Source: Acidobacteriaceae bacterium (GTDB lineage Bacteria; Acidobacteriota; Terriglobia; Terriglobales; Acidobacteriaceae). From it: a DNA stretch of 40,076 bases. The stretch lies in assembly GCA_003140235.1 (NCBI GenBank), contig PLJN01000124.1:9575-49650 (forward strand). The letters are read 5' to 3'. The translations under genes and the position numbers were made by a program. This document shows, piece by piece, positions 2,110 through 9,210 of the stretch (the first letter of the stretch is position 1; each line of letters begins with the position of its first letter). Under the pieces are notes generated by a model. The model was not told the DNA's origin. It made no database searches and was given only the letters and a program-made list of their open reading frames with translations.

Positions 2110-2189
2110 GAAACAGAGGCAAACGCGCAAATTGAGTTTTTGTTCAGGACACTACAGGCAGCATGTTCGCAAACTCGAATCGCAAACAA
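2110..2189. repeat. Direct repeat copy 2, overlapping the ATP-grasp gene 3' end
   Basis: Partner of 1950-2029. It covers the last 14 codons and the stop codon of the ATP-grasp gene plus about 34 bp downstream, so the repeat boundary does not respect the gene boundary. That argues for duplication of a chromosomal segment rather than insertion of a mobile element. Confidence 0.85.
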
Positions 2190-3325
2190 GCGTGGGCGTC
2201 CCGCAGACTCTCGACCGCACGCTCCACAGAATCCGCCCGCGAAAAGATGAAACCGAGGTAGCTAGCGCCTTCCGGAAGTGGCATCATCGCCTGCCCTTCT
2301 TTCGCTGTCACAACAATGTCCACAATGCTGTCCACGCTCCGAGCGTCATCGACGCCGGAAACACCCACGTAGCTACCGGCGCGCGGAATCGGGATCATCA
2401 TCACAGCGTGCGAACCCTCTTCGAGACGAGCGGCGCTCACGTCCTCTCCAACCGCGTGCCTTAGAATCAGTTCCTCCAGCGACTTGCCCTGCCAGCCCGA
2501 GAAACGCAGCACCCGAGAGCACAACCCTCCAATCGGCCGCGCCGCCACTTCCAGCATCCACACGCCTTCATCGTTGACCCGCATTTCGGCGTGAATCGGG
2601 CCGTGCGTCATGCCGAGCGCGGTGACGGCGCGTTGCGTCGTCTCCCTGATCGCGTCCTGCATCGGGACCGTCACATAAATCGTCTCCTCGAAAAATGGAC
2701 CGTCGAGAGGGTCGGGCTTGTCGAACAACGCAAGCACCTGCAATCGCCCGTTCGTGACAATCCCTTCGAGGGCGTACTCGTGGCCGGGAATGAAATCTTC
2801 GACGAGCACGGAAGGCTCGCGGGCGATGTCTTTTATCCGCCCGAACCCCGCGGCGAACTCGGCAGGGTTATTCGCTCGAATCACGCCGCGGCTTCCGGAG
2901 AGCCCGAGAGGTTTCAAAACGCATGGATACCGTCGCGGTCCCGTGGGTTGTTGAACAAGTTCATACCTGGGCGTCAGCAGCCCTGCCGCGCGAAATTTCT
3001 GCCGTGCCAGGAACTTGTTCTTCGCGGCGAGGACCGCCGACGGTGGACTGAACGCGAGGCCCAGCCGTTTTGCGGCCAGCGCGGCCACGTACGCCGGACG
3101 ATCGCCGACGGCTGCAATGCCATCGAAGGGTCCGCGCGCGACAATCGCTTCGATTCCTTCTTCAGGCGCGTCAAAACGCAGCCCGACGGCGTTGTCTCCC
3201 CACGGATCGTCGAGCACGTGGCAGCGGTCCGTGGCAAGCACCAGATCGAGCCCCATCTGCCGAGTTACATCGGAAAAGGCGCGCGTTTGATAACCGGTGG
3301 TGGCGGCTATAAGGAGAACGCGCAT
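2144..3325 (-). CDS. ATP-grasp domain carboxylate-amine ligase-like protein
   Basis: A 393-aa protein of the carbamoyl-phosphate-synthase/biotin-carboxylase-like ATP-grasp group. The N-terminus MRVLLIAATTGYQT begins a Rossmann-like preATP-grasp domain. The nucleotide-binding strand YPCVLKPLGLSGSRGV and the metal-binding strand EVAARPIGGL are both visible. Such enzymes activate a carboxylate with ATP and couple it to an amine; substrates are not predictable here. An upstream in-frame start at 3394 would overlap the preceding gene, whereas 3325 begins 8 bp after that gene's stop and directly at the fold, so I chose 3325. It is last in a minus-strand run behind the radical SAM, RRM and 104-aa genes. 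Confidence 0.82.
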   Translation of the reverse strand: MRVLLIAATTGYQTRAFSDVTRQMGLDLVLATDRCHVLDDPWGDNAVGLRFDAPEEGIEAIVARGPFDGIAAVGDRPAYVAALAAKRLGLAFSPPSAVLAAKNKFLARQKFRAAGLLTPRYELVQQPTGPRRYPCVLKPLGLSGSRGVIRANNPAEFAAGFGRIKDIAREPSVLVEDFIPGHEYALEGIVTNGRLQVLALFDKPDPLDGPFFEETIYVTVPMQDAIRETTQRAVTALGMTHGPIHAEMRVNDEGVWMLEVAARPIGGLCSRVLRFSGWQGKSLEELILRHAVGEDVSAARLEEGSHAVMMIPIPRAGSYVGVSGVDDARSVDSIVDIVVTAKEGQAMMPLPEGASYLGFIFSRADSVERAVESLRDAHACLRFEFANMLPVVS

Positions 3326-3333
3326 GCCTACAT

Positions 3334-3648
3334 TTATCGAGTACTTTTTATCCGCAGGCGAATCTCCACCTGCTGCTCCGCTGACAATCCCCACATCTCG
3401 GTTCCGTGAGCCCGGCCAATCAGGACATTCCCCGCGACTCCTTCGAATGCCGCGTTCTGCTTGAAGTTGCGCTGCGCACCGTCTTCGTTGATTTGGGCCG
3501 TATACCCATCGCCCAGCTTCGGATCGAAAGATTCGAAGTGCCCGCCGACTTCCTGCCGCGATTGCTGAAAACAGATCGGCCCGTTCGACTTCGTAATACC
3601 GCAGGTGCCGTCGGAGGCCACCAGGATGTACTCGTGAACTTTCGCCAT
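3334..3648 (-). CDS. Hypothetical protein (104 aa)
   Basis: A soluble protein without signal peptide or membrane segments. It has two Cys residues near the N-terminus (SDGTCGITKSNGPICF) and a polar body. It lies between the RRM gene and the ATP-grasp gene on the same strand, 8 bp from the latter, which supports co-transcription and a real gene. An 11-bp bulged hairpin lies just upstream of its ATG. I recognise no domain. The position before an ATP-grasp ligase might suggest a peptide substrate, but there is no leader or core-like pattern, so I do not propose that. Confidence 0.55.
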   Translation of the reverse strand: MAKVHEYILVASDGTCGITKSNGPICFQQSRQEVGGHFESFDPKLGDGYTAQINEDGAQRNFKQNAAFEGVAGNVLIGRAHGTEMWGLSAEQQVEIRLRIKSTR

Positions 3649-3692: not shown

Positions 3693-4010
3693 CTACCAGC
3701 GCTTATTCTGGCGGGGAGCGCCGTTGCCCCGGCCGCCGCCAAAACCACCGCCGCCGCCGCGATCTTCCTTCGGACGCGCTTCGTTGATCGTCAGATTTCG
3801 GCCGGCCAGATCCTGGCCGTTCAACGAGCTGATGGCCCGCTCTGCTTCCGCATCGCCGGTCATCTCGACAAATCCGAATCCCTTGGCCCGGCCGGTATCA
3901 CGGTCGGTAACGATGCTGACGCGCTCCACTCTTCCGTACTGTTCGAACAGCGAACGGACTGCGTCTTCAGTAACCCCAAAGCTGAGGTTTCCCACAAATA
4001 TATTTTTCAA
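3693..4010 (-). CDS. RRM-type RNA-binding protein
   Basis: A 105-aa protein with one RNA recognition motif. RNP2 is IFVGNLSF at residues 4-11 and RNP1 is KGFGFVEM about 30 residues later. A Gly/Arg-rich tail (RGGGGGFGGGRGNG) follows, as in bacterial and cyanobacterial glycine-rich RNA-binding proteins often induced by cold. It probably binds single-stranded RNA in the cytoplasm; the targets are unknown. The upstream gap to the radical SAM gene is about 170 bp and AT-richer than its surroundings, so it may have its own promoter and a long leader. Confidence 0.92.
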   Translation of the reverse strand: MKNIFVGNLSFGVTEDAVRSLFEQYGRVERVSIVTDRDTGRAKGFGFVEMTGDAEAERAISSLNGQDLAGRNLTINEARPKEDRGGGGGFGGGRGNGAPRQNKRW

Positions 4011-4183
4011 GTGAACTTCCTTCTGATTTACAAACGGTTGATCGGGGCAGGATCGGACAAGGGCGGTTGGACCGGACTATGCGAAAGAGCCGAAAATTTA
4101 CTACGCCTCATTGTCGCACATTTATGGTCGTTTAAGGCATCGCAATCGCGCATTTTTGGTATTTTAACGTTATTTAAGGCCTG

Positions 4184-5479
4184 CTAAAGAAGAGCAACCT
4201 GCTCTTCGGTGGGTTCCGCTCAACAATACCAAGGCTCGTCCAGGTAAGGAACAGCCGCGCGCGGCACCAGATGAAAATTCTCAGGCAGCGGCTCGTCGCT
4301 CGCCTCAGCCCAGATCGCGGCGAACATCTCCGTGCGGTTAAGTCCTTTATTAGCAACAATTCGAAAGATCCGTCCAGCCAAGTCATCCAGTGGCCCCTGC
4401 CACGGATAGACCAGCAGCCTCCGATCAAACGGCCCAATGATCGATCGAATGTCGTCCAACTCCAAAAGCCGCGAACTGGTAGTAATCAAAAGCCTTAATG
4501 CCAACTGAATGCTCGAGACATTTTCAACCAGTTCCAGATCCTTCAAAACCCTCAGCAATTCGCGATAATTCTCGATTGTGGTCCAGGGCGTGAACGCGAT
4601 AAATGTCGGTTGCAGCGCGAGTCCGGTTTTGCGGGCTAAATTCACAACTTCGAAAAAATCGTGACGGGTGTGGTTTTTTTCTAGCTTTGCGAGGATAGCA
4701 TCGTCGAGCGATTCGACTGCGGTGGTGACGAACAGGCATCCGGTGTCGCGCAAAGGAACGAGTAGATCGCGGTGTTTGAGCAGATGCTCGATTTTGATGG
4801 TGGCGTCGTAGGTCACTTGCGGAAATTCGGCGTGCAGCGCTTCTGCGATGCGCATTGCGTGGGTTGGGCCGTTGAAAAAATCGGGATCTCCAAATGTTAC
4901 GTGGCTCGAGCCCTGGGCGATTTGTTGGCGGATATCGTCGAGCACCACGTCGCGCTGGACGACTCGAAATTCGCCTTGATAGACAGGCACGACGGGGCAA
5001 TGGCGGCACACATGTTTGCAGCCTCGGCTGGCTTCGGTATACGCGACGCGCGAAGGAAGAACATCGCTGCGGTCGGGTTTGATAAAGGTTAACTTGTCGA
5101 GCGAGATTTCGCTAAAATTCTCGCCGTTTGCCCACGCGACAAGCGCCGGCTCGAACTCGCCGCCCATAATTGCTTCGACGCCCAGGCCTTCGAGCAACTC
5201 CCGGTTGAGAGGCGCGTAGAGGCCGTAGCAGGCGATTCTTGCGCTGGGGTTCAGGAGTTTGACTCGTTCGATCACGGGAACGGCAAGGCGCGTCGCGGTA
5301 TGCATGGGCAGCGAGAACGCCACTCGATCCGCTTGCCGGATCAGGTCTTCCGGAAGTTTGGTTTTGGCGAGGTCTACCGCCGTTACTTCATGTCCAGCGC
5401 GGACTAGCCACGCTTTGGGCGATGCCAAGCTGAACGGCTGATGGCCCAGTTCGTACGTCGAGACGAGAACAATACGCAA
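4184..5479 (-). CDS. Radical SAM selenoprotein with C-terminal CUAEP tail (UGA at 4220-4222 read as Sec)
   Basis: A 431-aa protein if the in-frame UGA is translated. Residues 1-120 form a B12-binding-like Rossmann domain. The radical SAM cluster motif SRGCKHVCRHC (Cys 154, 158 and 161, CX3CX2C) follows, then a TIM-barrel-like part. The frame meets UGA directly after PWYC; reading on gives CUAEPTEEQVALL and a TAG stop at 4184-4186. I know a radical SAM family named for exactly this CUAEP/CCAEP tail, in which Sec and Cys versions alternate. Twelve nt after the UGA is an 8-bp hairpin whose apex GCAGGTTGC resembles the E. coli fdhF SECIS apex GCAGGTCTGC. Conventional annotation would stop at 4220 and lose 12 residues. 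Start: TTG at 5479, with no Shine-Dalgarno but a TATAGA hexamer 4 nt upstream. The substrate is unknown. Confidence 0.88.
4189..4207 (-). promoter_or_regulatory. SECIS-like hairpin directing selenocysteine insertion
   Basis: On the minus-strand mRNA an 8-bp perfect stem GAAGAGCA/TGCTCTTC closes a GGT loop, starting 12 nt after the UGA. Bacterial SECIS elements recognised by SelB lie immediately downstream of the Sec codon inside the coding region and show GGU in the apical loop, as here. The separate bulged U of the fdhF SECIS is not evident. The following bases are TTTAG, so a weak terminator role is the alternative. The CUAEP continuation across the UGA favours SECIS. Confidence 0.8.
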
Positions 5480-5483
5480 CGTG

Positions 5484-5491
5484 TCTATAGT
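5484..5491. promoter_or_regulatory. Shared symmetrical -10 element between divergent genes
   Basis: Only 17 bp separate the divergent starts at 5479 (minus) and 5497 (plus). The palindrome CTATAG at 5485-5490 supplies TATAGT on the plus strand, 5 nt before ATG, and TATAGA on the minus strand, 4 nt before TTG. Neither gene has room for a Shine-Dalgarno sequence. Both would be leaderless if this is the -10. Inferred from spacing alone. Confidence 0.5.
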
Positions 5492-5496
5492 GTAAT

Positions 5497-6330
5497 ATGC
5501 CGGGAATTATTAGAGCGCTGCGCCCCACCTTCCGCTACTGGATGCAGACCGAGGTGCACGTCTACGCATTCTCGGTTGCGGCGAACGTGCTGTTGTCGTT
5601 TTATCCTTTTCTGATCGTGAGCGTCGCGGTCGCATCGAAATTCTTCAATCGGCAAACGGCACTCTCGGCGATCGACCTGGCGCTGAGCGACTTTTTCCCG
5701 GATGCGCTGGGAAATTTTCTCCATAACAATCCTCCTCCACAGGGGAAGATCGAGATTATTTCGTTGTTCCTGCTGCTATTCACGGCGAACGGGATTTTCG
5801 AACCGTTGGAAGTCGGGTTGAACAACGTTTGGGGGATTCACAAAAATCGCAGTTTCTTTCGAAATCAACTGGTCAGCCTGGCGTTAATTTTCATTTGCGG
5901 CGGATTGGCACTGGGCTCGCTGCTAATGACGGCGTTCAGCCAGGAATCGTTCCGCAAACTCATGGGAACTGACCCTTCCTGGGTGCCGGCTTCGTTCTTC
6001 ACCTGGGTTCCGATTCTGACCTTCAAGATGGCGGCAGTTCCGATTACGGTCTTCGTGCTGTTTCTGATCTATCGATACTTGCCGAACGGAAAGCCTCCGA
6101 TCGAGCGCGTGATTCCGGCGGCCATCGTGGTAGGTGTGCTGCTCGAAGTGCTGAAACAGATCAATAAGTGGGTGTGGCCGGGGTTCTATCAAAAGCTCGG
6201 CCGCGAATATAACGTGTTTAAGAACTCGGTCACTCTGATTTTGATCGGGTTCCTGGTATCGATGCTGGTGCTGGCCGGGGCGGAGTGGTCCGCTCGCGGT
6301 CACAGAATGGATGAAAAAGCAGATGGCTGA
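5497..6330 (+). CDS. YihY/BrkB family inner-membrane protein
   Basis: A 277-aa protein with about six hydrophobic segments and the family pattern FSVAANVLLSFYPFLIV near the N-terminus, GIFEPLEVGLNNVWGI in the middle and YRYLPN before the last helices. Members are polytopic membrane proteins of unclear molecular function; older names such as ribonuclease BN or BrkB are not reliable for function. The last residues (ARGHRMDEKADG) come from sequence repeated again before the SDR start, so the C-terminus overlaps a duplicated region. The ATG at 5497 has a TATAGT hexamer 5 nt upstream, consistent with a leaderless mRNA. Confidence 0.88.
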   Translation: MPGIIRALRPTFRYWMQTEVHVYAFSVAANVLLSFYPFLIVSVAVASKFFNRQTALSAIDLALSDFFPDALGNFLHNNPPPQGKIEIISLFLLLFTANGIFEPLEVGLNNVWGIHKNRSFFRNQLVSLALIFICGGLALGSLLMTAFSQESFRKLMGTDPSWVPASFFTWVPILTFKMAAVPITVFVLFLIYRYLPNGKPPIERVIPAAIVVGVLLEVLKQINKWVWPGFYQKLGREYNVFKNSVTLILIGFLVSMLVLAGAEWSARGHRMDEKADG

Positions 6331-6345
6331 GAGAAAATTGGCGGT
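6287..6345 (+). repeat. Direct repeat copy A (yihY end plus SDR start)
   Basis: This 59-bp sequence recurs at 6446-6504, 159 bp downstream, with 2 mismatches by eye. It contains the yihY stop codon and the first 11-12 codons of the SDR gene. In copy A the SDR start is not followed by an SDR body. Confidence 0.9.
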
Positions 6346-6433
6346 AGGGGCGCAGAGGTATGGGAAGCAGAAGCGAGAATTTTTCTCGTCTGTCCGCTCC
6401 CTGACGGTCGCGGTTCAGTGTCGGAATTTGTGA
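6311..6433 (+). pseudogene. Collapsed SDR gene copy: first 12 codons fused in frame to the last codons
   Basis: Reading from ATG 6311 gives MKKQMAERKLAV, identical to the SDR N-terminus, then directly GAQRYGKQKR, matching the SDR C-terminus GAERYRKQKV, then unrelated residues to a TGA at 6431-6433 (40 aa). About 250 codons of the SDR are missing, yet the frame is kept. This is the scar of a tandem duplication followed by internal deletion of the first copy. It overlaps the yihY 3' end. A functional micro-peptide is possible but unlikely. Confidence 0.8.
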
Positions 6434-6442
6434 TGGTCCCGG
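6385..6442 (+). repeat. Dispersed element, copy 1 (CCGCTCCCTGACGGTCGCGG core)
   Basis: A roughly 58-bp sequence recurs at 8420-8477 with few differences, and shortened relatives sit at 7289-7310. The core can fold on the opposite strand as CCGC-GA-CC-loop GTCA-GG-GA-GCGG: 4 + 2 base pairs around tandem G-A mismatches, a small-hairpin architecture like REP elements. I remember near-identical cores scattered through acidobacterial genomes, but this was not checked. Confidence 0.7.
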
Positions 6443-6445
6443 ATA

Positions 6446-6504
6446 GGTCTGCTCGCGGTCACAGAATGGATGAAAAAGCAGATGGCTGAGAGAAAACTGG
6501 CGGT
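6446..6504 (+). repeat. Direct repeat copy B at the SDR start
   Basis: Partner of 6287-6345. It carries the authentic SDR start and a stranded copy of the last yihY codons, confirming that the duplicated unit spanned the yihY-SDR junction. Confidence 0.9.
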
Positions 6505-7282
6505 GGTCACGGGTGCGTCGAGCGGTATCGGTGCGATGTTCGCTAGGAAGCTGGCTGCGCGCGGATATGACTTGCTTCTCGTAGCGCGACGGGAAGACCG
6601 TTTGCGATCGCTGGCGGTGGAATTGTCGGAGATGTATCATGTCGACAGCGACGTTATGGTCGCCGATCTTGCCGCGGATGCGGATCGGGAGCGAGTGGCG
6701 GAACGGATTCGCTCCGCGTCGAATTTGGGATTGTTGGTGAACAACGCCGGATTCGGGACGCTGGGATTTTTCGCCGACAGCGATCTGGAGAGCCAGTTGC
6801 AGATGCATCGATTGCACGTGCTCGCGGCGATGCATCTGACTCATGCGGCGCTCACGAATTTGATTCCTCGCGGAGAGGGCGGCGTGATCAACGTATCGTC
6901 GGTCGCGGCATTCGGACAGTCGGCGGGAAGCGTCAGCTATTGCGCGACCAAAGGCTGGATGAACGATTTCACATCGGCTTTACATGCGGAACTGGAGGTG
7001 CAGAAATCGCCCGTCAAGGTGCAGGCGCTGTGCCCGGGATTTACGCTATCGGAATTTCACGACACGGCGGCAATCGACCGGAGTCCGATTCCCCAGAGCT
7101 TATGGATGACCGCGGACTTCGTCGTTAGCGAGTCGCTGCGCGGGTTCGACGAAGGGAAGTTGATCGTGATTCCGGGGTGGCGGTACAAGCTGATTGTGAT
7201 GTTCATGAAGGCGCTGCCGGGGTGGGCGTTGCGAAAGATGTCGGCGAAGGGGGCGGAGAGGTATCGGAAGCAGAAGGTGTGA
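6470..7282 (+). CDS. Short-chain dehydrogenase/reductase (SDR)
   Basis: A classical SDR of 270 aa. The nucleotide-binding motif TGASSGIG is at residues 14-21, NNAG at 91-94, the catalytic Ser at 143-144, and Tyr157 and Lys161 in YCATK. It reduces or oxidises a carbonyl/alcohol with NAD(P)H; the substrate is not predictable (the DltE-like subgroup is the nearest I can name). Two starts compete: ATG 6470 (MKKQMAERK) and ATG 6482 (MAERKLAVV). I keep 6470 because the same ATG is preserved in the duplicated remnant, but 6482 is plausible. A truncated copy of both its ends lies just upstream. Confidence 0.88.
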   Translation: MKKQMAERKLAVVTGASSGIGAMFARKLAARGYDLLLVARREDRLRSLAVELSEMYHVDSDVMVADLAADADRERVAERIRSASNLGLLVNNAGFGTLGFFADSDLESQLQMHRLHVLAAMHLTHAALTNLIPRGEGGVINVSSVAAFGQSAGSVSYCATKGWMNDFTSALHAELEVQKSPVKVQALCPGFTLSEFHDTAAIDRSPIPQSLWMTADFVVSESLRGFDEGKLIVIPGWRYKLIVMFMKALPGWALRKMSAKGAERYRKQKV

Positions 7283-7513
7283 ATTGGCCTTGTCTGTCCG
7301 CTCGCGGTTCGGCGACATTCTCGAAAACCTCGGGTTTGATCGCTCCTGCCGGTCGCGGTTCTACAACCTCCGGGCTGCTCCCGGATGGACCGATTGCCAA
7401 TCGGTCCGGAGGGCCGACGGGTGGATAACGAATGGGAATGAAAACGCAGTCGGAAGAGCCGCCTCAAGGCGGCTGCAGCCAGGATTGGCCGCCCTACAAG
7501 ACGCGATTACCGA
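7283..7513. repeat. Convergent intergenic region packed with palindromes
   Basis: Between the SDR and TIGR03435 stops lie a shortened version of the dispersed element (7289-7310), a perfect 9-bp hairpin GGACCGATT-GCC-AATCGGTCC at 7387-7407, and a perfect 8-bp hairpin AGCCGCCT-CA-AGGCGGCT at 7457-7474 followed by GCAGCCAGGATTGGCC. The last resembles a repeat I remember from acidobacterial genomes. They probably act as bidirectional 3'-end structures for two convergent genes. No coding sequence is credible here. Confidence 0.65.
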
Positions 7514-8362
7514 TCAGTTGGCGGTGGGGGTCTTTTCTGCCTTATCGATTACCAGTAGGTCGAGTTTCGCCTTGTTGGCCACCAGTCTCAAGCCGAGCTG
7601 ACGCTCCAGTGCGTCGACTAGCGTTGGACTTGGTTCGCTAGCGTTATCCGTTGGGGGTGGGAGCTGTCCCGGCGGAAGGTTGGGGGCGAACTCGATGCTG
7701 AAATCGTATTTGCCGGTCAGCCCTGTTTTGTCCAGCACGGGACGATCGAGCTGGCTCCCCAAGAGCACTGTCAATTTGGAGAGCGGCTGCGCTTTCGCAA
7801 CGGTGTGGGCAGTCGGCCTGTTCGAGCCCATCGTGATCGTCGTCACGAATCCGGGGCCGTTCAGCGCCATGTTCTTGTCCAACTTAGGAGGACCTTCGGC
7901 GTTGGGATCATCCACGGCTGTGTCCTTCAACTTGGAGCCGCCCTTGGCGACCACCAATTCCTCTACTTGGAACTCTTTGGATTCGTGGTGCAGAACCACG
8001 CCGAACCGCTCCGCTAGCAGACTCTGCCACATCACAATGACCTGATCCTTCGTCGCTCCCTCCGGGACCTTCGCGATGACGTGGTATCTTTCGGTCGACA
8101 TCCAAACGGGACCCCGCACCTGGTAGGACTTCACGTCATAAGCGGTCATGAGCATATCTATCAACCTCGCGTATTCCCACTTGATTTGTCCGGGGTCGGA
8201 CGATCCGGGACCGCCGCGAGCTGGTCCAAAGTAGACTCCTTCGCGTGGGGGAGGGGACGGCTTGACCGACGCCACTTCAAACGTCAGGGCGCGGGTGGGC
8301 TGCCCGAAGGCGAGCGCACACACGAGAATCGCCAGACCTACGCTGAACGGCACTAATCGCAT
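7514..8362 (-). CDS. Secreted TIGR03435-family soil-associated protein
   Basis: A 282-aa exported protein with the signature of the TIGR03435 family, abundant in Acidobacteriota and of unknown function: FEVASVKPSPPP after the signal, YHVIAKVPEGAT in the middle, LAERFGVVLHHE, and RPVLDKTGLTGKYDFSIEF near the end. The signal peptide is RLVPFSVGLAILVCALAFG. An upstream in-frame ATG at 8401 adds 13 charged residues before the signal. The ATG at 8362 gives a normal signal peptide and has a TATTTT hexamer 6 nt upstream, so I chose it. It is probably monocistronic. Confidence 0.9.
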   Translation of the reverse strand: MRLVPFSVGLAILVCALAFGQPTRALTFEVASVKPSPPPREGVYFGPARGGPGSSDPGQIKWEYARLIDMLMTAYDVKSYQVRGPVWMSTERYHVIAKVPEGATKDQVIVMWQSLLAERFGVVLHHESKEFQVEELVVAKGGSKLKDTAVDDPNAEGPPKLDKNMALNGPGFVTTITMGSNRPTAHTVAKAQPLSKLTVLLGSQLDRPVLDKTGLTGKYDFSIEFAPNLPPGQLPPPTDNASEPSPTLVDALERQLGLRLVANKAKLDLLVIDKAEKTPTAN

Positions 8363-8368
8363 ATTGGT

Positions 8369-8374
8369 AAAATA
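8369..8374 (-). promoter_or_regulatory. Candidate -10 hexamer (TATTTT) for a leaderless mRNA
   Basis: On the minus strand TATTTT is followed by ACCAAT and then the chosen ATG at 8362. The 6-nt spacing places the transcription start at or next to the start codon. No Shine-Dalgarno sequence is present. Confidence 0.45.
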
Positions 8375-8419
8375 GACGGAGTGGTTTTTAAAGCGTTTCA
8401 TTTTTTGTGGTGGAACCGC

Positions 8420-8477
8420 CTCGTCTGTTCGTTCCCTGACGGTCGCGGTTCAGTGTCGGAATTGCGATGGTCTCGGG
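8420..8477 (+). repeat. Dispersed element, copy 2
   Basis: Matches 6385-6442 in the same orientation, including the CCCTGACGGTCGCGGTTCAG core. The changes in the left arm (CCGC to TCGT) weaken the hairpin, so copy 2 may be an older, decaying copy. It lies between the divergent TIGR03435 and antitoxin genes. Confidence 0.7.
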
Positions 8478-8518
8478 CAGCGCTTCTTTTCGGTCTGCTA
8501 TCCTTAGCGGCAAGAGCG

Positions 8519-8537
8519 CGGAAATTCCGGATTTCCG
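8519..8537 (+). promoter_or_regulatory. Palindrome upstream of the antitoxin start (candidate operator)
   Basis: CGGAAAT-TCCGG-ATTTCCG is a perfect 7-bp inverted repeat ending 12 bp before the AbrB-type ATG at 8550. AbrB/MazE-type antitoxins usually repress their own promoter by binding such palindromes. Assignment rests on position only. Confidence 0.45.
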
Positions 8538-8549
8538 AACTAAGGCACT

Positions 8550-8885
8550 ATGAGCACCCTCGTCAAAGTTCAATCCAAGGGCCAAATGACCATCCCCCGC
8601 CGCGTGCGTTCCGCCGTCGGCTTGGTTGATGGCGACCTTGTCGAGGTGAAGGCGGTCGGCAAGAAAATCGTCATTACGCCGCAACTCGTGATCGATCGGT
8701 CTAAATTCCCAACCGCTGACGACGAATATACGCCGGCGCAGCGCCGCGTCATTGACGCGCGCCTCGCAAAATCCGATGACGACATCCGGCGCGGCCGGGT
8801 TTATGGTCCGTTTGACACTCACAAAGAATTCATCGCCTCGCTACGCCGGGAAGGCGCAAAGCTTCGTTCAAAGAACCAATCCTAA
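8550..8885 (+). CDS. AbrB/SpoVT-type DNA-binding antitoxin
   Basis: A 111-aa protein. Residues 1-45 form a swapped-hairpin AbrB domain: LVKVQSKGQMTIPRRVRSAVGLVDGDLVEVKAVGKKIVI. The C-terminal half (EYTPAQRRVIDARLAKSDDDIRRGRVYGPFDTHKEF) is a helical antitoxin tail of the type that wraps around RelE/ParE toxins. The start of a toxin gene follows 14 bp after the stop, so this is the first gene of a toxin-antitoxin pair, probably autoregulated through the upstream palindrome. The toxin frame is broken, leaving this as an orphan antitoxin if the sequence is right. Confidence 0.88.
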   Translation: MSTLVKVQSKGQMTIPRRVRSAVGLVDGDLVEVKAVGKKIVITPQLVIDRSKFPTADDEYTPAQRRVIDARLAKSDDDIRRGRVYGPFDTHKEFIASLRREGAKLRSKNQS

Positions 8886-8899
8886 GCGCGTGCAGGCCC

Positions 8900-9144
8900 A
8901 TGAGGCTCCTCTTCACCGCTCATTTCAATCGCGCCTTCAACGACGCTCCGAAACGAGTTCAGCGGGCGTTTGAGAAGCAGTCGCTGCTCTTGCTTCAGAA
9001 CCCGCGTCACCTTCCCTGCGCGCAAAAAAGTACAGCAGCGCTGAGGACAAGTGGCAGGCTCGCGTCAATCAAGACTGGCGCTTCTACTTCCGGATCGCGG
9101 GTGAGGCCTATATCATGACCCACATTACGTCTCACCCAAAATGA
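8900..9144 (+). pseudogene. RelE/ParE-type toxin gene with a frameshift
   Basis: The first half reads RLLFTAHFNRAFNDAPKRVQ and the second half, in another frame, KWQARVNQDWRFYFR then AYIMTHITSHPK and a TGA at 9142-9144. Together they make a normal RelE/ParE-fold toxin of about 81 residues. The switch falls near 9009-9020, where CACCTTCCCTGCGC would read through as HPSLRAKKY with one extra base. The total length of 245 nt is one base short of a whole number of codons. Either a decayed toxin or a one-base assembly error. No slippery heptamer for programmed shifting is seen. Confidence 0.8.
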
Positions 9145-9210
9145 GCGATTCATGCCGCCGTCGCTCTCTCAGTGATAAACTCATCCTTTCAAGGAGCATC
9201 CTCGATCACA

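What the first reader, a model, noticed from the sequence alone, without database searches (positions are those of the whole stretch)
4184..4230. Selenocysteine-coding UGA in a radical SAM gene, with a SECIS-like hairpin
The gene conventionally ends at a UGA (4220-4222, minus strand) right after PWYC. Reading through gives C-U-A-E-P-T and eight more residues before a TAG. This is the tail by which a radical SAM family (CUAEP/CCAEP-tail) is defined. An 8-bp perfect hairpin begins 12 nt after the UGA, and its apex GCAGGTTGC is close to the fdhF SECIS apex. Adjacent Cys-Sec at the C-terminus suggests a redox or metal-binding tail. Automatic annotation would truncate the protein and call the hairpin a terminator. 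The family is known; this instance, and the organism's Sec decoding, are what needs notice.
Basis: partly seen in the sequence, partly recalled or inferred. Interest (0 to 1): 0.85.

Follow-up and report, generated by a model that had tools for sequence, protein, structure and literature searches.

The report
Selenocysteine-tailed radical SAM enzyme with partner
This soil bacterium almost certainly reads an apparent stop codon as the rare amino acid selenocysteine near the end of a radical SAM enzyme; the enzyme family is already catalogued, but its job is unknown, and we find that it nearly always occurs with one particular amino-acid-ligase-like gene, which hints at a small two-step biosynthetic pathway.

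Summary
On the minus strand the radical SAM gene (5479-4184) has an in-frame UGA at 4220-4222, followed by A-E-P-T-E-E-Q-V-A-L-L and TAG, with a hairpin 12 nt after the UGA. It belongs to NCBIfam NF040546 (CUAEP/CCAEP-tail radical SAM (seleno)protein; 552 bits, cut-off 500). The genome has selA, selB, selD (itself a selenoprotein) and tRNA-Sec (anticodon UCA).

In 80 homologous loci the position is UGA in 60 and Cys in 20, always followed by AEP. The hairpin covaries, is far commoner than synonymous codons allow (48 observed, 0.85 expected), and is mostly lost in Cys forms. So this is a new member of a known family, on which I found no paper.

New here: in 396 genomes of the phylum the enzyme co-occurs with one unnamed ATP-grasp (L-amino-acid-ligase-like) subfamily in 63 of 64 cases, against 4 of 332 genomes without it. 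In the window the partner lies at 3328-2144.

The enzyme is a distant homologue of ArsL (arsinothricin synthase), which also ends in vicinal cysteines. Best guess: it makes an unusual SAM-derived amino acid, its Cys-Sec tail holding a soft atom or supplying electrons, and the ligase couples the product. That function is inferred.

The parts
4184..5479 (-). CUAEP-tail radical SAM selenoprotein gene, TTG start at 5479, 431 residues with Sec420, TAG at 4184-4186
   Evidence: NF040546 552.4 bits read through, 530.3 bits truncated, cut-off 500; only member in the genome, one TGA inside
4220..4222 (-). In-frame UGA read as selenocysteine (Sec420) next to Cys419
   Evidence: UGA in 60 and a Cys codon in 20 of 80 homologous loci at the same place, all followed by AEP
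4187..4219 (-). Read-through tail AEPTEEQVALL; AEP is conserved in the protein, TEEQVALL is probably largely dictated by the hairpin
   Evidence: AEP invariant; the part after AEP diverges in Cys forms, e.g. AEPAPQV, AEPLPV, AEPMQDRVTLV
4189..4207 (-). Bacterial SECIS hairpin inside the coding region, stem GAAGAGC/GCTCTTC, loop AGGTT
   Evidence: Fold, covariation, synonymous-codon test, bSECIS model, fdhF apex
4997..5020 (-). Radical SAM CX3CX2C motif CKHVCRHC (Cys154, Cys158, Cys161)
   Evidence: Invariant cysteines in 41 aligned members; PF04055 41.7 bits, cut-off 29.5
2144..3328 (-). Partner gene: ATP-grasp ligase with LAL_C2 (L-amino acid ligase) domain; likely start at the ATG at 3328 (the GTG at 3394 is upstream of the homology)
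   Evidence: PF13535 91.3 and PF18603 51.7 bits, both over cut-off; co-occurs with the CUAEP rSAM in 63 of 64 genomes; nearest solved structure L-amino acid ligase BL00235, E 3.8e-25
3693..4010 (-). RRM-type RNA-binding protein between the two genes; not conserved there and probably not part of the system
   Evidence: NF058537 112.9 bits; absent between the two genes in relatives

Best explanation
Well supported by comparative sequence evidence: the UGA at 4220-4222 is decoded as selenocysteine by the organism's own SelA/B/C/D system, directed by an in-gene SECIS hairpin at 4207-4189, giving a 431-residue radical SAM protein with a vicinal Cys419-Sec420 near its C-terminus (PWYC-U-AEP). Supported by co-occurrence: the enzyme works together with a dedicated ATP-grasp ligase subfamily, encoded in the window at 3328-2144. 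Inferred: it has the fold of B12-binding-domain radical SAM enzymes and is a distant homologue of ArsL, so it probably uses SAM to build or modify an unusual amino acid (possibly by 3-amino-3-carboxypropyl transfer, as proposed for ArsL). The probably mobile Cys-Sec tail reaches the active site either to hold a soft electrophilic atom or metalloid or to supply electrons. The ATP-grasp enzyme then joins the product to another amino acid or amine. The confidence given is for the recoding and the partnership; I would put the specific chemistry at about 0.3.
For: Recoding: sel genes; SelD of the same genome is itself Sec-containing with a GGU-loop hairpin; 60 UGA / 20 Cys at one column, AEP invariant; covariation; 48 full stems vs 0.85 expected; stem mostly lost in Cys forms; at least 8 changes between Sec and Cys on the tree; selB in 44 of 47 genomes with the UGA form but in 5 of 10 with a full-length Cys form. 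Partnership: ATP-grasp in 63 of 64 genomes with the rSAM and 4 of 332 without, on the same contig in only 44 of the 63. Function: ArsL family 228 bits, sub-threshold; 27-31% identity to plasmid ArsL proteins that end in RCCLKC; ATP-grasp genes also lie beside ArsL; fold of AprD4, MgmA, OxsB, TsrM (Z 25-28).
Against: No protein-level evidence of Sec. No arsenic genes near CUAEP loci beyond three weak methyltransferase hits. The CUAEP-linked ATP-grasp resembles the ArsL-linked one only at superfamily level (22-26% identity). The tail is modelled with low confidence (pLDDT about 45-50), so docking in the active site is not shown. Three genomes with the UGA form lack a detected selB (two of them about 75% complete). 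Co-occurrence counts are not corrected for shared ancestry. The T. roseum member has no ATP-grasp gene nearby.
Confidence: 0.88

Rival explanations
1. The UGA is an ordinary stop; the hairpin is a transcription terminator or chance, and the AEP read-through is meaningless.
For: The truncated protein already passes the family cut-off (530.3 bits); the hairpin of this one sequence is only moderately stable (z -1.58).
Against: AEP follows in 80 of 80 loci; Cys codons replace the UGA in 20; the hairpin covaries and no run of T follows it; sel genes are present.
Confidence: 0.02
2. The Cys-Sec tail is a resolving redox tail (as in thioredoxin reductase, from general knowledge): it reduces a disulfide or a sulfur/selenium intermediate in each turnover and is not a metalloid ligand.
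For: Vicinal Cys-Sec on a low-confidence, probably flexible C-terminus; Sec and Cys are interchangeable over at least 8 changes, as is common for redox Sec.
Against: The homologous ArsL tail (RCCLKC) occurs in an enzyme whose substrate is As(III) (PMC8552651), which favours a ligand role; neither was tested.
Confidence: 0.4
3. The system makes an organoarsenical of the arsinothricin kind: an ArsL-like enzyme adds the SAM-derived aminocarboxypropyl group to As(III) bound by Cys-Sec, and the ATP-grasp ligase makes a dipeptide.
For: Homology to ArsL; ATP-grasp genes beside ArsL in Priestia, Alicyclobacillus, Pantoea and Klebsiella plasmids; vicinal C-terminal Cys in both.
Against: No arsR, arsN, aquaporin, MFS or CobW-like genes near CUAEP loci, and only three weak, scattered methyltransferase hits to ArsM; ArsL cut-off not reached (228 of 450 bits).
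Confidence: 0.15
4. The rSAM and the ATP-grasp ligase merely share a niche or a transferred island and do not act in one pathway.
For: Both are patchy: none of three other genomes of the genus has either; they are adjacent in many genomes.
Against: 63 of 64 against 4 of 332, with 19 of the 63 pairs on different contigs (some may be assembly breaks). The order-level sample shows the same: 14 of 14 against 2 of 136.
Confidence: 0.07

Closest known systems
NCBIfam NF040546, CUAEP/CCAEP-tail radical SAM (seleno)protein
   Same: Full-length match over the curated cut-off, same tail, Sec/Cys interchange
   Different: Nothing essential. The instance is from a Bryobacterales soil MAG; other loci are 70% identical or less. 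The family has no assigned function that I could find.
NCBIfam NF040542, ArsL (RCCLKC-tail, arsinothricin biosynthesis)
   Same: Homologous over most of the length (27-31% identity), CX3CX2C, vicinal Cys at the C-terminus, ATP-grasp gene nearby
   Different: Below the ArsL cut-off (228 of 450 bits); CUAEP instead of RCCLKC; a longer C-terminal region; no ars gene context
E. coli fdhF SECIS / bacterial SECIS consensus
   Same: Short apical loop with G, placed 19 nt after the UGA, apex GCAGGU
   Different: Loop AGGUU with an uninterrupted stem; shorter than the fdhF element
L-amino acid ligases (BL00235, PDB 3vot) - partner gene only
   Same: ATP-grasp plus LAL_C2 domain, E 3.8e-25
   Different: No NCBIfam model reaches its cut-off: an unnamed subfamily
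TIGR04167 and TrsS radical SAM selenoproteins (PMC13188914)
   Same: Radical SAM selenoproteins
   Different: Other families with other Sec motifs; CUAEP/NF040546 is not mentioned in that 2026 review

Membership tests
NF040546 CUAEP/CCAEP-tail radical SAM (seleno)protein | HMM score over curated cut-off 500 | tested here: met
   552.4 bits read through, 530.3 truncated
NF040546 CUAEP/CCAEP-tail radical SAM (seleno)protein | C-terminal C-[U/C]-A-E-P tail | tested here: met
   PWYC-U-AEP; invariant in 41 aligned members
NF040546 CUAEP/CCAEP-tail radical SAM (seleno)protein | Radical SAM CX3CX2C motif and domain | tested here: met
   CKHVCRHC with invariant cysteines; PF04055 41.7 bits
Bacterial selenoprotein with bSECIS | In-frame UGA with Cys homologues at the same column | tested here: met
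   60 UGA and 20 Cys loci
Bacterial selenoprotein with bSECIS | bSECIS model: loop 3-9 nt, stem 4-16 bp, G in first two loop positions, 16-37 nt spacing, MFE <= -7.5 kcal/mol | tested here: met
   Loop 5 nt AGGUU, stem 7 bp, spacing 19 nt, -11.4 kcal/mol
Bacterial selenoprotein with bSECIS | selA, selB, selC, selD in the genome | tested here: met
Bacterial selenoprotein with bSECIS | Sec present in the protein; SelB binds the hairpin | not testable with these tools
   needs 75Se labelling, mass spectrometry or a binding assay
NF040542 ArsL | HMM score over cut-off 450 and RCCLKC tail | tested here: not met
   228 bits; tail is CUAEP
NF040542 ArsL | arsM/ars gene context | tested here: not met
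   No homologues of arsR, arsN1, MFS, CMD, CobW-like or aquaporin genes near 80 loci; only three weak, scattered methyltransferase hits to ArsM
Cobalamin-dependent (class B) radical SAM | N-terminal B12-binding domain | tested here: inconclusive
   Fold matches OxsB, TsrM, MgmA and also AprD4; PF02310 22.1 bits, below its 32.1 cut-off

The most novel reading that the evidence does not exclude
The CUAEP radical SAM selenoenzyme and its ATP-grasp partner form an undescribed two-enzyme pathway, found across Acidobacteriota (the rSAM also in Chloroflexota, Methylomirabilota and Actinomycetota MAGs), that makes a new SAM-derived amino acid or dipeptide, possibly carrying a metalloid held by the Cys-Sec tail.
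Probability: 0.4. Interest if true: 0.78.

Novelty: new member of a known kind. Interest (0 to 1): 0.46.

Why it matters
The selenoprotein call itself adds one member to a catalogued family. What helps the field is that the family, for which I found no function in the literature library, now has a firm genomic partner (63 of 64 genomes), a distant homologue with known chemistry (ArsL), and several independent natural swaps between Sec and Cys. These make its function directly testable. It also shows that annotation of such genes can still be cut at the UGA, removing the conserved tail.

Tried and rejected
Rfam scan of the window and the two selA loci at gathering thresholds: nothing. Terminator reading: no T-run after the hairpin, and the hairpin covaries. 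Arsenic gene neighbourhood: searched for and not found apart from three weak methyltransferase hits. A Sec-containing ATP-grasp (two genomes listed with a TGA inside): alignments showed no TGA within the conserved domain, so rejected. RRM and 104-aa genes as third components: not conserved in that place. Local papers: no hit for CUAEP or NF040546, and no relevant paper joining radical SAM, ATP-grasp and selenocysteine or arsinothricin; the library lacks most subscription papers. Structural matches to AprD4, MgmA, OxsB and TsrM show the fold only, not the function.

Full report
OBSERVATION. Reading the minus strand, the radical SAM frame from the TTG at 5479 runs to a UGA at 4220-4222; reading through gives ...DEPWYC-U-AEPTEEQVALL and TAG at 4184-4186. 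One slip: seven, not eight, residues follow CUAEPT. The hairpin GAAGAGC-AGGTT-GCTCTTC (4207-4189) starts 12 nt after the UGA. Its energy alone is unremarkable (-11.4 kcal/mol, z -1.58), so the case rests on comparison.

FAMILY. With the UGA read through, the protein scores 552.4 bits against NCBIfam NF040546, CUAEP/CCAEP-tail radical SAM (seleno)protein (cut-off 500); cut at the UGA it scores 530.3, so the tail itself adds 22 bits. Pfam sees Radical_SAM over its cut-off and a B12-binding domain below it. It is the only member in the genome.

SEC MACHINERY. The genome (about 4.9 Mb, 89% complete) has selB and one selA on the same contig, a tRNA-Sec with anticodon TCA and a selD that is itself a selenoprotein (...AAGUASKLS). 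A locus 100% identical over the protein is from the Bryobacterales MAG palsa_187. A second selA on a stretch of 63.7% GC and a second selD at 49.6% GC may be contamination of the bin (window 57.2%); the argument does not need them.

HOMOLOGUES. Of 80 loci kept, 60 have UGA and 20 a Cys codon at the same position, and all 80 continue AEP. In Cys forms the sequence after AEP often diverges (AEPAPQV, AEPLPV, AEPMQDRVTLV). In most Sec forms it stays TEEQVALL-like, which is what an RNA constraint predicts.

SECIS. In 48 distinct Sec sequences the six inner pairs hold in 97.6% of cells, with 16 two-sided compensatory changes (shuffles 2.3 +/- 1.4) and a covariation score of 0.236 against 0.090; sliding the partner destroys it. 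Shuffling synonymous codons gives 0.85 full stems expected among 59 Sec loci against 48 observed. Among 15 Cys forms long enough to test, 1 has a full stem. The hairpin meets the published bSECIS constraints (PMC13188914) and its apex resembles fdhF.

EVOLUTION. On a tree of the 80 proteins plus outgroups the Sec/Cys state changes about nine times, at least eight forced by well-supported branches. The outgroup T. roseum has the UGA form, so repeated Sec-to-Cys change is the simpler reading, though the tree does not fix direction. In the phylum sample selB is found in 44 of 47 genomes with the UGA form and in 5 of 10 with a full-length Cys form (Fisher p 0.003).

PARTNER GENE. The gene most often found downstream is an ATP-grasp protein with an L-amino-acid-ligase C-terminal domain (window 3328-2144, minus). 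It is not named by NCBIfam; its nearest solved relative is L-amino acid ligase BL00235. In 150 genomes of the order, all 14 with the rSAM have it, and 2 of the other 136 do. In 396 genomes of the phylum the figures are 63 of 64 and 4 of 332. The pair is on one contig in only 44 of the 63, so linkage alone does not explain it, although some of the other 19 may be assembly breaks. The Fisher p-values (7e-18, 4e-67) ignore shared ancestry and should not be read literally. The genes between the pair in the window (RRM protein, 104-aa protein) are not conserved there.

RELATION TO ArsL. A plasmid search found ArsL-type RCCLKC-tail proteins as the next relatives, 27-31% identical. They also end in vicinal cysteines and sit in operons, several with arsM, that hold an ATP-grasp gene. 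ArsL is proposed to transfer the 3-amino-3-carboxypropyl group of SAM to As(III) (PMC8552651). But no ars genes lie near CUAEP loci apart from three weak methyltransferase hits, and the two ATP-grasp groups are only superfamily relatives. I therefore take 'works like ArsL, with another substrate' as a lead, not a finding.

STRUCTURE. The AlphaFold model is confident for the body (mean pLDDT 89) and poor for the tail (405-417 and 424-431 under 50; 418-423, which holds Cys-Sec-Ala-Glu-Pro, is slightly better). The fold is that of B12-domain radical SAM enzymes (AprD4 Z 28.0, MgmA 27.1, OxsB 26.4, TsrM 25.4). AprD4 does not use cobalamin (general knowledge), so B12 use is open.

VERDICT. Selenocysteine recoding is about as certain as sequence comparison can make it. 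The family is known; this instance is a new member. The partnership with a specific ATP-grasp ligase is the new and useful result; the chemistry is inferred. I found no publication on the family or the pair in the open-access library, which does not exclude subscription papers.

Noticed in passing
L103:6935-8380 (NC_011961.1, Thermomicrobium roseum plasmid): RefSeq CUAEP protein WP_012643191.1 is truncated at ...SWFC; the next codons are TGA GCG GAG CCG (U-A-E-P) followed by a perfect hairpin GGACCCGTCGGGTCC. No ATP-grasp gene lies nearby.
   Followed up: partly
window 2144-3328, and 63 of 64 CUAEP genomes: An unnamed ATP-grasp/LAL_C2 subfamily co-occurs almost perfectly with the CUAEP radical SAM enzyme.
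   Followed up: yes
L107 (NZ_CP028479.1, Klebsiella pneumoniae conjugative plasmid) 4001-9146: An arsinothricin-type cluster (RCCLKC-tail radical SAM, ATP-grasp, MFS, ArsM, CobW-like GTPase, ArsR nearby) on an IncF plasmid.
   Followed up: no
L017:1402-2502 (-), own genome: selD encodes a Sec-containing selenophosphate synthetase (AAGUASKLS) with a GGU-loop hairpin after the UGA.
   Followed up: partly
L001 and L018, own genome: Second copies of selA (63.7% GC, about 50% identical to the first) and selD (49.6% GC) differ in GC from the window (57.2%); possible bin contamination.
   Followed up: partly
L064 and L100 (Methylomirabilota): A HesB/IscA-like Fe-S carrier gene (identified by eye) lies between the ATP-grasp and rSAM genes; in other clades nadA, moaA and yggX-like genes are neighbours.
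   Followed up: no
G165, G202, G352, G398 (genome search): Four genomes have the ATP-grasp partner without a detected CUAEP rSAM, two of them incomplete; G398 has a full-length ligase and could show what it does alone.
   Followed up: partly
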